DNA of 37,929 nt from Lachnospiraceae bacterium (GTDB lineage Bacteria; Bacillota; Clostridia; Lachnospirales; Lachnospiraceae), in assembly GCA_017392525.1 (NCBI GenBank), contig JAFOVD010000037.1, positions 1 through 37,929 on the forward strand. The letters are read 5' to 3'. Made by a program: the position numbers and the translations under genes. The notes beneath the pieces were generated by a model. That model worked only from the letters and a program-made list of their open reading frames with translations. It ran no database searches and was not told where the DNA came from. Below, in pieces: positions 35,562 through 37,929 of the stretch; positions within the stretch are counted from its first letter, which is position 1; the number at the start of each line of letters is the position of its first letter.

Positions 35562-37362
35562 CTAACTTCAGTACACTCATGAATGCTTCCTGCGGAATCT
35601 CTACATTTCCAACCTGGCGCATTCTCTTCTTTCCTTCCTTCTGTTTCTCAAGAAGCTTCTTCTTACGGCTGATATCACCACCGTAACACTTCGCCAATAC
35701 ATCCTTTCGCATTGCTTTGACAGTTTCACGCGCAATAACCTTGTTACCGATTGCAGCCTGAATAGGAATTTCAAACATATGTCTTGGAATTTCACCCTTA
35801 AGCTTCTCACACATCTTACGACCGCGTTCGTAAGCAGTTCCTTCAAATACAATAAAGGAAAGTGCGTCCACTGTTTCCTTATTAATGAGGACATCCAGCT
35901 TCACAAGCTTGGATTCAACATATCCCTTCATTTCATAATCAAATGAAGCATATCCACGGGTTCTGGACTTTAATGCATCAAAGAAATCGTAGATAATTTC
36001 ATTCAGTGGCAATACATACTTAATAAGTGCACGTGTTTCCTCCATGTATTCCATGCTGACATAGATACCACGTCTCTCCTGGCAAAGATCCATTACAGCC
36101 CCCACATACTCAGAGGTTACCATAATTTCCGCATCTACCACCGGCTCTTCCATATAATCTATCTCAGATGGATCCGGAAGATTTGATGGGTTGGTAAGTT
36201 CAATCATAGTACCATCTGTCTTATGCACACGATAAACAACTCCCGGTGCGGTTGTAACAAGATCCAGGTTGTACTCTCGTTCAAGTCTTTCCTGAATTAC
36301 ATCCAAGTGAAGCAATCCCAAAAATCCACATCGGAAACCAAATCCAAGGGCAATAGAGGTTTCCGGTTCAAACTGCAGTGCAGCATCATTTAACTGTAAT
36401 TTCTCAAGTGCATCTCTAAGGTCTGTATATTTAGAAGAATCTGCAGGATATAGACCGCAGTAAACCATCGGATTTACCTTCTTGTATCCCGGAAGGGGTT
36501 CTGCACACGGACGATTATGTTCTGTAACCGTATCACCCACACGTGTTTCCTGCACATCTTTAATACTTGCCGTAAAATAACCAACAGTACCGGCCGGCAG
36601 CTCATCACAGGGAATAAACTGTCCCGCACCAAAATATCCAACTTCAACTACCTCTTCAACAGCGCCCGTTGCCATCATGCGAACCTTCATTCCTGCCTTC
36701 AGGGTACCCTCTTTAATACGACAGAATACAATTACGCCACGGTAAGCATCATAGAGAGAATCGAAAATCAAAGCCTGTAACGGAGCAGTTGCATCCCCTG
36801 TTGGAGCAGGAAGCTTTGTAACAATCTCCTCTAATACGTCTTCCACATTTAATCCCGTCTTCGCGGAAATACATGGTGCATCCTGTGCTTCTATCCCAAT
36901 CACATCCTCGATTTCATCCTTGACACGATCCGGATCTGCACTTGGTAAATCAACCTTGTTGATAACCGGAATAACATCCAGGTCATGATCCAAAGCCAGG
37001 TAAACATTAGCCAGAGTCTGCGCCTCAATTCCCTGTGCAGCATCAACCACAAGGATTGCGCCATCACACGCTGCAAGACTTCGTGAAACTTCATAGTTAA
37101 AATCCACATGTCCCGGAGTATCTATTAAATTAAAGATATACTCGTTGCCATCTTTTGCATGATAAATCAAACGAACTGCCTGAGATTTAATGGTAATCCC
37201 GCGTTCTCTCTCCAGTTCCATATTGTCAAGCACCTGCGCCTGCATTTCACGTTCTGTCAAAAGACCGGTCATCTGAATCATACGATCAGCCAATGTTGAT
37301 TTTCCATGATCAATATGCGCAACAATACAAAAATTACGAATCTTATCCTGTTCGAATGTCAT
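35551..37362 (-). CDS. lepA: Elongation factor 4 (LepA), ribosome-associated GTPase
   Basis: This is a 603-aa translational GTPase. It has the N-terminal G1 motif AHIDHGKST, the G3 motif DTPGHVDF and the G4 motif NKVD, then domains II, III and V. The LepA-specific C-terminal domain has [28 protein letters not shown]. The length is normal. The start has GAGAGG upstream and a probable promoter at 37411-37440. It is the first gene of lepA-hemW. Confidence 0.98.
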
Positions 37363-37410
37363 TTTATACCTCTCTAAACAATTGCCAATTGCAATCTATT
37401 TTCGATGTCA

Positions 37411-37440
37411 ATATTACCACAGAGCCGGGTGTATTAACAA
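37411..37440 (-). promoter_or_regulatory. Probable promoter of lepA
   Basis: On the minus strand there is a TTGTTA (37435-37440), an 18-nt spacer and a TAATAT (37411-37416), with the extended form TGTGGTAATAT. It lies about 50 bases before the lepA start. Confidence 0.5.
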
Positions 37441-37614
37441 GCAAACCCCAAAAATTCTCCCTTCCATTCTGCAAAGGGCACGTGACCGATGCTCGTTTTT
37501 TGCATATTGAAAAATAATAATATTCGCGAAAATATGGCGGCGGGCCGTCGAGGAGCGTAAGAAATGACGGTATTACCTGGAAGCGAATGAAGGAACGGGA
37601 TAATGGAGAAATTT
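37441..37614. other. Non-coding segment upstream of the nested palindrome
   Basis: No gene is supported here. The part from about 37530 to 37605 is richer in G and purines than its surroundings (GGCGGCGGGCCGTCGAGG, then AGCG...GACGG and AGCG...AACGGG). It contains two loosely similar units starting AGCG (37555 and 37582). It leads directly into the inverted repeat and may belong to the same element. Confidence 0.4.
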
Positions 37615-37807
37615 GTTACTATTCACAGTTATAGAATATTTAAAATGTATTCTGTCCAAATTTATTTGGTAAGAAATACTTTTAAATATTCTATAAACTG
37701 GAATCAGTGACTCCACCCACATGAATAATGTTAAGTGCTTCAGCACTGAGAAAGAAGTCTGAAAGACTTCCATTATGAATGTGGGTGGAGTTACTGTGAA
37801 TAGTAAC
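37615..37807 (+). repeat. 193-nt nested inverted repeat with cloverleaf-like fold
   Basis: The outer arms GTTACTATTCACAG (37615-37628) and CTGTGAATAGTAAC (37794-37807) are perfect complements. Inside are two long arms. Arm A has TTATAGAATATTTAAAA (37629-37645) pairing perfectly with 37680-37696 and capped by a CCAAA/TTTGG hairpin. Arm B has AGTGACTCCACCCACAT (37706-37722) pairing with 37779-37795, then a GA/GA internal loop and ATAATG/CATTAT. It ends in two small hairpins, AGTGC-TTCA-GCACT and GAAGTCT-GAA-AGACTTC. The one non-Watson-Crick pair in arm B is G-U on the plus strand but C-A on the minus strand, and GA/GA is stable only on the plus strand. This favours a plus-strand RNA fold. Family is unknown. 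Confidence 0.9.
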
Positions 37808-37837
37808 TTATCTATAGTCGGGGAGGCTGTGAGTTCT

Positions 37838-37929
37838 ATGAGATTTCTTATCTTTGAAATGAAAACAGTATGCTACAATTCATATCTTTATTTTGGTGAC
37901 TCTCTTGGTGAGGCTCTTACAAAGCTTGG
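37838..37929 (+). CDS. Unrecognised gene, 5' end only (truncated by the window)
   Basis: An ATG at 37838 opens a frame with no stop to the window end (30 codons), starting MRFLIFEMKTVCYNSYLYFG. GGGGAGG (37820-37826) lies 11 bases upstream, a little far but strong. The short hydrophobic first strand followed by a possible helix (GDSLGEALTKLG) is like the N-terminus of a GT-B glycosyltransferase, but 30 residues cannot establish this. It starts 30 bases after the nested palindrome, which would lie in its leader. Confidence 0.45.
   Translation, partial: MRFLIFEMKTVCYNSYLYFGDSLGEALTKL

What the first reader, a model, noticed from the sequence alone, without database searches (positions are those of the whole stretch)
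37615..37807. Large cloverleaf-like nested palindrome: candidate structured RNA or small mobile element
Three levels of perfect or near-perfect inverted repeats are nested in 193 nt: a 14-bp outer stem, a 17-bp perfect arm, and a 17-bp plus 6-bp arm that splits into two small hairpins. No listed gene or terminator explains it. The tandem GA/GA internal loop and the G-U pair are favourable only in the plus-strand RNA, which argues for selection on an RNA rather than simple DNA symmetry. A palindromic element of the IS200/IS605-derived kind or a structured 5' leader of the next gene are the main alternatives.
Basis: partly seen in the sequence, partly recalled or inferred. Interest (0 to 1): 0.7.

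Follow-up and report, generated by a model that had tools for sequence, protein, structure and literature searches.

The report
Cloverleaf-shaped mobile DNA of Lachnospiraceae
The nested palindrome is one copy of a small mobile DNA element found in many Lachnospiraceae; it has the same ends as an IS66-type transposon in the same genome and keeps an elaborate cloverleaf fold although its letters change.

Summary
The structure is real: 37600-37820 folds at -93.8 kcal/mol as RNA (z -14.7) and 37615-37807 at -55.7 as DNA (z -14.5). It is a 193-bp mobile element with perfect 14-bp terminal inverted repeats (TIRs; GTTACTATTCACAG). Relatives of 179-202 bp (80 loci) carry 8-bp target duplications: 31 of 78 exact, none at lengths 5-7 or 9-12. 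The window's genome holds a 2962-bp IS66-family transposon with identical 14-bp ends. The two elements sit at opposite ends of one insertion in the rpsT-lepA gap: their outer flanks form one 8-bp target duplication, and the DNA just inside each end matches two adjoining contigs of another species at 98-100%. Best read as a composite transposon of IS66 plus cloverleaf element. The fold is conserved: 55 diverged members keep it through massive compensatory change (covariation score 0.419; shuffles 0.163; slid at most 0.131). Selection on an RNA is not supported (no G-U preference, no orientation bias), nor excluded. I file it as an IS66-type MITE with a conserved cloverleaf, a new variant of a known kind. 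What the fold does is unproven.

The parts
37607..37614 (+). Left copy (lepA side) of the 8-bp target duplication AGAAATTT; the other copy, AAATTTCT (its reverse complement), is beside the IS66 transposon on contig C11 (L079 938-945)
37615..37628 (+). Terminal inverted repeat GTTACTATTCACAG
   Evidence: identical in 55 of 55 aligned members; the members were found by a pattern that requires it
37630..37695 (+). Arm 1: long hairpin, sequence hypervariable in the family but self-complementary
37697..37708 (+). Central mini-hairpin ACTG-GAAT-CAGT
37709..37792 (+). Arm 2: basal stem, GA/GA internal loop, two-lobed head
37794..37807 (-). Terminal inverted repeat, second copy (CTGTGAATAGTAAC on +)
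37808..37929 (.). 122 bp beyond the element, up to the contig end: identical to the flank of the element in another species (G399, locus L135); inferred inner cargo of the composite transposon
37302..37614 (-). 5' end of lepA (reading leftwards from 37362) and its upstream gap; with the rpsT side on contig C11 it rebuilds the rpsT-lepA gap of G001
   Evidence: the gene name lepA is my reading of the sequence, no family search was run on it

Best explanation
The palindrome is a non-autonomous transposable element (MITE) of the IS66 type, of the subgroup whose ends read GTNACTNNTCA. An IS66-family DDE transposase binds its two 14-bp TIRs and inserts it with an 8-bp target duplication. Shown: TIRs, duplications, multi-genome copies, a full IS66-family transposon with identical ends in the same genome, and one insertion with the IS66 end on one side and the cloverleaf end on the other. 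Inferred: that this insertion is a composite transposon (IS66, about 4.5 kb of cargo, cloverleaf; about 7.7 kb) that came from a species like G399, so that one transposase used the outer end of both elements. The inside is maintained as a cloverleaf by compensatory change. The likeliest reason (inferred, weak) is that one strand folds as single-stranded DNA, for example on the lagging-strand template, which brings the two TIRs together or keeps long palindromes tolerable; its loops are of the GNA/GNNA mini-hairpin type.
For: Copies: exact TIR in 58 of 397 family genomes, 603 sites by my sum, against 17 for the reversed motif. 80 loci with paired TIRs 150-180 apart (the list was cut, 119 or more exist). 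Target duplication: 31 of 78 exact at 8 bp, mean identity 0.72 vs 0.31 for mismatched flanks, 0 exact at 5-7 and 9-12. Same-genome IS66 element: 2962 bp, TIRs 14/14 identical, 581-aa protein over the NF033517 cut-off (183.9 vs 180 bits) and PF03050. Composite: flanks AGAAATTT (lepA side) and AAATTTCT (rpsT side) are one duplication; neither element alone has a duplication (3 of 8 matches each); rpsT and lepA are neighbours in G001, and the joined flanks align to it at 93-94%; the DNA inside each end matches G399 at 98% (252 bp) and 100% (122 bp), on two contigs whose starts overlap by 55 bp, while lepA of G399 is only 75% identical. Related transposases: 29 of 397 family genomes; of 28 loci read, 9 have TIR pairs within 3 mismatches of the window's, 3 of them with exact 8-bp duplications; three plasmid IS66 elements (ISGka4 among them) end in GTAACTATTCAGCC or GTAACTGCTCAGCA with exact 8-bp duplications. 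PMC12898284 (passages read) reports ISDge4, IS66 family, ends GTGACTACTCAGCA / GTAACTGCTCAGCA and an 8-bp repeat. Fold: 75 of 81 elements fold as the cloverleaf; covariation 0.419 vs shuffles 0.163 and slides at most 0.131, 719 two-sided cells vs 262. Strand: 96 of 209 hairpin loops are GNA or GNNA, 2 are their complements.
Against: Most cloverleaf-rich genomes searched show no close IS66 partner: of 24 genomes, only the window's own had a strong match; G243 with 243 sites had none by either search. Only 8 of the 58 TIR-positive genomes are among the 29 with a relative of this transposase. Full-length classical IS66 elements in G149, G174 and G156 have other ends. The G000 cargo itself is not assembled: only 252 and 122 bp of it are seen, so a chimeric assembly with a co-sampled G399-like organism is not fully excluded. 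Six of 81 TIR-bounded elements of this size are not cloverleafs, and one-armed forms exist (L088, L093), so the fold is not strictly needed for mobility. Single-stranded DNA versus RNA: DNA and RNA parameters recover the shape equally (40 of 55 each).
Confidence: 0.88

Rival explanations
1. A structured RNA (regulatory or stand-alone) that happens to be spread by a transposon: the selected object is the transcript, and mobility is secondary.
For: Strong covariation over 55 members; strand-specific loops and purine-purine mismatches; 23 of 28 GNNA loops are GNRA, as RNA prefers (the preference is recalled). A 614-bp element with nearly the same ends (13 of 14 bases) carries an Rfam RNA, TwoAYGGAY.
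Against: No excess of G.T over A.C in stems (41 vs 50; the cruder column count gave 223 vs 148). No orientation bias between tandem genes (17 vs 15). No Rfam match at gathering score in the window or in the elements of 18 further loci. GNA triloops (68) outnumber GNRA loops (23). No expression data on hand.
Confidence: 0.2
2. Mutation, not selection, keeps the arms complementary: template switching during replication copies one arm onto the other (palindrome correction), which mimics compensatory change.
For: Arms are nearly perfect although arm sequences differ as much between members (identity 0.41) as unrelated halves do (0.40), while own halves match at 0.88; mismatch types in stems are unbiased for G.T.
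Against: Correction should erase the conserved interruptions, but the asymmetric loop of arm 1, the central hairpin and the arm 2 internal loop persist, and that loop changes in concert (AA with GC in 17, GA with GA in 18 of 55 rows by my reading of the flanked states; one row is AA with GA). Strand-biased loops (96 GNA/GNNA vs 2 complements) are not expected from correction alone.
Confidence: 0.3
3. Assembly chimera: the element and the last 122 bp belong to a co-sampled G399-like species and were joined to the lepA contig by mistake.
For: Element plus right flank are 100% identical to G399 while lepA is 75%; the contig ends 122 bp on.
Against: The lepA-element junction lies exactly at the TIR and its flank is the exact partner of the flank at the rpsT-IS66 junction; both junctions share only 14 bp with other loci, too short to mis-join by usual assembly words (inference). 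Even if true, the family and its mobility stand on the 80 other loci.
Confidence: 0.1
4. IS200/IS605-type palindromic element moved as single-stranded DNA by a Y1 transposase.
For: Prominent hairpins.
Against: Perfect TIRs and 8-bp target duplications; partner is a DDE IS66 transposon.
Confidence: 0.02

Closest known systems
IS66 family, ISBst12-like members (ISDge4, ISGka4)
   Same: 8-bp target duplication; ends of the form GTNACTNNTCA; DDE_Tnp_IS66 transposase in the same-genome partner (PMC12898284, passages)
   Different: The element has no gene; the partner's transposase is only about 24-28% identical to the plasmid IS66 proteins listed and has an extra 130-aa ORF. Subgroup placement rests on ends and similarity, no tree was built
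Prokaryotic MITEs in general (review PMC10969869, passages)
   Same: Short, no gene, TIRs, target duplications, stem-loop transcripts predicted
   Different: Three-branched internal architecture kept by compensatory change across many genera; the passages of the review that I saw name no IS66 MITE (0 occurrences of IS66 in its main text)
Bacillus cereus repeats bcr1-bcr18 (PMC6542083, passages)
   Same: 100-400 bp dispersed non-coding elements with mobile features, up to 130 copies (bcr1)
   Different: A site-specific-recombination-like mechanism with TTTAT motif is proposed for bcr, not TIRs of an IS66 type; conserved bcr1 RNA fold is recalled, not read
TwoAYGGAY RNA (RF01731)
   Same: Highly structured, in Clostridia; found inside a 614-bp TIR-bounded palindrome of Pseudobutyrivibrio sp. 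YE44
   Different: The window element does not match it

Membership tests
MITE | Short and without its own transposase | tested here: met
   193 bp; no ORF of 100 aa or more in it (its length allows at most 64 codons)
MITE | Terminal inverted repeats | tested here: met
   14/14 bp
MITE | Target duplications at copies | tested here: met
   31 of 78 exact 8-bp, rest partly decayed or none; this copy: shared with the IS66 end
MITE | Many dispersed copies | tested here: met
   Within the window's genome only one cloverleaf copy; many in other genomes
MITE | Mobilised in trans by a known transposase | tested here: inconclusive
IS66-derived element | Ends match an IS66-family element | tested here: met
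   14/14 with the 2962-bp IS66 element of the same genome
IS66-derived element | 8-bp target duplication | tested here: met
   IS66 relatives with 8 bp in L288, L294, L308, L312-L314
IS66-derived element | Classical IS66 end GTAAGCG | tested here: not met
   Classical ends were seen in other IS66 elements (L271, L272); the window's end is the GTNACTNNTCA type
IS200/IS605 | No TIR, no target duplication (recalled) | tested here: not met
   Both are present
Structured non-coding RNA | Compensatory changes | tested here: met
Structured non-coding RNA | Member of an Rfam family | tested here: not met
Structured non-coding RNA | G-U pairs favoured on the folded strand | tested here: not met
   41 G.T vs 50 A.C inside helices; 223 vs 148 by alignment columns
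Structured non-coding RNA | Transcribed | not testable with these tools
   No expression data
Composite transposon (IS66 plus MITE) | One target duplication around both outer ends, cargo between | tested here: met
   Duplication and inner flanks; the middle of the cargo is not assembled in G000

The most novel reading that the evidence does not exclude
The cloverleaf is a single-stranded DNA device of a DDE (IS66-type) transposon parasite: one defined strand folds at the replication fork into a GNA-looped cloverleaf that presents the two ends together, so that a small element lives on a transposase thought to need only double-stranded ends, and in pairs with the IS it carries host genes between species.
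Probability: 0.25. Interest if true: 0.8.

Novelty: new variant of a known kind. Interest (0 to 1): 0.6.

Why it matters
It turns an odd palindrome into a family of mobile elements with a measurable structural constraint, spread over many Lachnospiraceae genera, and links it to a little-studied IS66 subgroup. The rpsT-lepA insertion suggests that such elements pair with an IS66 transposon and move chromosomal genes between gut or rumen species. Because the fold is kept while letters change, the question whether a transposon needs an internal fold, as DNA or RNA, becomes directly testable by arm swaps. The repeats also break metagenome assemblies: in G243 many contigs listed begin about 70-87 bases before a TIR.

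Tried and rejected
Near-neighbour search in phage and plasmid records: no match. TIR pairs in viral contigs: none; transposase relatives in viral contigs: none confirmed. Rfam: no family at gathering score for the element. IS200/IS605: rejected by TIRs and duplications. Terminator or leader role: rejected for lack of orientation bias, a test with a simple ORF finder on 74 loci, 15 of which were too near an edge and 5 overlapped ORFs of 100 aa or more. DNA against RNA parameters: no difference. The idea that classical IS66 elements in cloverleaf-rich genomes are the partners failed: their ends differ. First orientation method (fuzzy probes) left 25 of 80 elements nearly tied and was replaced by a structural rule. 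L172 passed that rule but does not align, and was dropped before the covariation count (55 instead of 56 non-redundant rows). Literature: ten searches listed no description of this element or of an IS66 MITE in Lachnospiraceae; the TIR letters occur in no held paper; subscription papers are mostly not held.

Full report
Observation. Window 37600-37820 folds as RNA at -93.8 kcal/mol against a shuffle mean of -39.7 (z -14.7), and 37615-37807 as DNA at -55.7 against -13.8 (z -14.5); none of 200 shuffles was as stable in either case. The element is bounded by a perfect 14-bp inverted repeat, GTTACTATTCACAG. It is 193 bp long and lies 122 bp from the end of its contig; the window is the whole contig.

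Copies elsewhere. In its own genome it is single, and none of the three other genomes of the genus searched has a match. A DNA search of 299 family genomes gave a full-length match outside the window's genome only in G156 (two copies, 94% and 85%), plus shorter or weaker ones. The 14-bp end alone, however, occurs exactly in 58 of 397 family genomes, 603 sites by my sum of the listing, 30 genomes with two or more, against 17 sites for the reversed motif.

Target duplication. For the 78 of 80 with enough flank, left and right flanks agree at exactly 8 bp: 31 identical, mean identity 0.72 against 0.31 for flanks of different elements; at 5-7 and 9-12 bp no pair is identical, at 4 bp one is. This is a DDE-type insertion signature and not that of IS200/IS605.

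Partner. The window's genome has one other pair of exact ends, 2962 bp apart on contig C11. Between them lie a 581-aa protein (IS66 family: NF033517 183.9 bits, cut-off 180; PF03050 E 6.6e-18) and a 130-aa ORF. Relatives of the protein occur in 29 of 397 family genomes and among 665 database proteins, 120 listed. Among 28 family loci read, 9 carry end pairs within three mismatches of the window's TIR, 3 of them (L288, L294, L308) with exact 8-bp duplications; three plasmid IS66 elements chosen from the 15 listed of 88 records (Geobacillus ISGka4, Anoxybacillus, Deinococcus) have ends GTAACTATTCAGCC, GTAACTATTCAGCC and GTAACTGCTCAGCA, with exact 8-bp duplications. Passages of PMC12898284 describe ISDge4, an IS66-family element with ends GTGACTACTCAGCA and GTAACTGCTCAGCA and an 8-bp repeat, which that paper puts in the ISBst12 group. 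So the window's end is an end of this IS66 type.

One insertion, two elements. Neither the IS66 element (flanks AAATTTCT and TATATGTT) nor the window element (AGAAATTT and TTATCTAT) has a duplication of its own. But AAATTTCT, on the rpsT side, is the reverse complement of AGAAATTT, on the lepA side, and in G001 rpsT and lepA are neighbours; joining the two G000 flanks with one copy of the 8 bp gives a sequence that aligns to G001 on both sides at 93-94%, with about 165 extra bases on the lepA side. Just inside the IS66 end the DNA (252 bp) is 98% identical to contig C33 of G399, and just inside the cloverleaf end (122 bp) it is 100% identical to contig C13 of G399. The starts of C33 and C13 are reverse complements over 55 bp, so they adjoin, about 4.5 kb apart end to end. 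G399 is another species: its lepA is 75% identical. It has no match to the IS66 element itself, and at the matching point of C33 it has TATATGTT once. The simplest account is a composite transposon IS66-cargo-cloverleaf of about 7.7 kb that moved from a G399-like species. The middle of the cargo is not assembled in G000, so this last step is inferred.

The fold is conserved. Of 81 elements (80 loci and the window), 75 fold as outer stem plus short linear arm plus longer arm; six do not, and one of the 75 (L172) is unrelated in sequence. On a sequence-only alignment of 55 non-redundant members, 84.0% of pair cells are standard pairs (shuffles 67.7, slides at most 43.6), 719 cells are changed on both sides (shuffles 262, slides at most 283), and the covariation score is 0.419 (shuffles 0.163, slides at most 0.131); all eight helices have two-sided changes. 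The structure was derived from folds of these same sequences, which helps it against the slides. The 14 TIR pairs never vary, by selection of the set. Own arm-1 halves match at 0.88, halves of different members at 0.40. Between the window and its 94% relative L005 one arm-1 pair has gone from G-C to A-T on both sides, and another change is one-sided.

DNA or RNA. In favour of one folded strand: 96 of 209 hairpin loops are GNA (68) or GNNA (28), against 2 of the complementary kinds, and mismatches inside the helices are purine-purine 138 times against 33 pyrimidine-pyrimidine (partly shared by descent). Passages of PMC4686876 describe GNA and GNNA loops as making extraordinarily stable DNA mini-hairpins. 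Against an RNA reading: 41 G.T against 50 A.C mismatches inside helices, although a cruder column count gave 223 against 148, and no orientation bias between tandem genes, 17 against 15. Neutral: DNA and RNA parameters recover the full shape in 40 of 55 each, and the complementary strand in 41 of 55; the arm-1-first strand is the more stable in 51 of 55 with either set. I lean to single-stranded DNA, weakly.

What speaks against the account. Cloverleaf-rich genomes mostly lack a close relative of the partner transposase: 1 strong match (the window's own genome) among 24, and none in G243 with 243 sites. Only 8 of the 58 genomes with the end are among the 29 with a relative of the transposase. 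An exact end next to a relative of the transposase (55% identical, C-terminal piece) was seen once more, in G025. Either the drivers have been lost, are missing from the drafts, or another transposase serves. Shorter and one-armed forms with the same ends exist, so the full cloverleaf is not needed for mobility.

Novelty. MITEs are a known kind, and IS66 ends and duplications are known. What I did not find in the ten searches listed is an IS66 MITE of Lachnospiraceae, a MITE with a three-branched fold kept by compensation over this range, or an IS66-MITE composite. Hence: new variant of a known kind.

Noticed in passing
window 37808-37929 and L079 3908-4159 (G000 contig C11): DNA inside both ends of the insertion is 98-100% identical to a different species (G399) whose lepA is 75% identical: recent transfer, or a chimeric assembly.
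   Followed up: partly
L080 563-1176 (Pseudobutyrivibrio sp. YE44, G156 contig C23): A 614-bp near-complete hairpin bounded by TTTACTATTCACAG, one base off the window's end, carries a TwoAYGGAY RNA (RF01731) near its apex (L080 788-948).
   Followed up: partly
L081 3320-3450 (G149): A variant of about 130 bp with an extra inverted end (31-bp palindrome GTTACTATTCACAGGAACTGTGAATAGTAAC) and flanks GATAGGAT on both sides, the 8-bp duplication.
   Followed up: partly
No IS66 partner found by two searches.
   Followed up: partly
window 37465-37531: This stretch between lepA and the element matches two other places of G001 at 82-84% (L258, L260); both loci hold TwoAYGGAY RNA matches nearby. It is part of about 165 bp present in G000 but absent from the rpsT-lepA gap of G001, perhaps another dispersed element.
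   Followed up: no
L267 207-2063, L268 388-1209 and 1206-2429 (G399): The inferred cargo holds ORFs of 618, 273 and 407 aa that look to me like a chemotaxis receptor, an aldolase and a glycosyltransferase (impression only, not searched).
   Followed up: no
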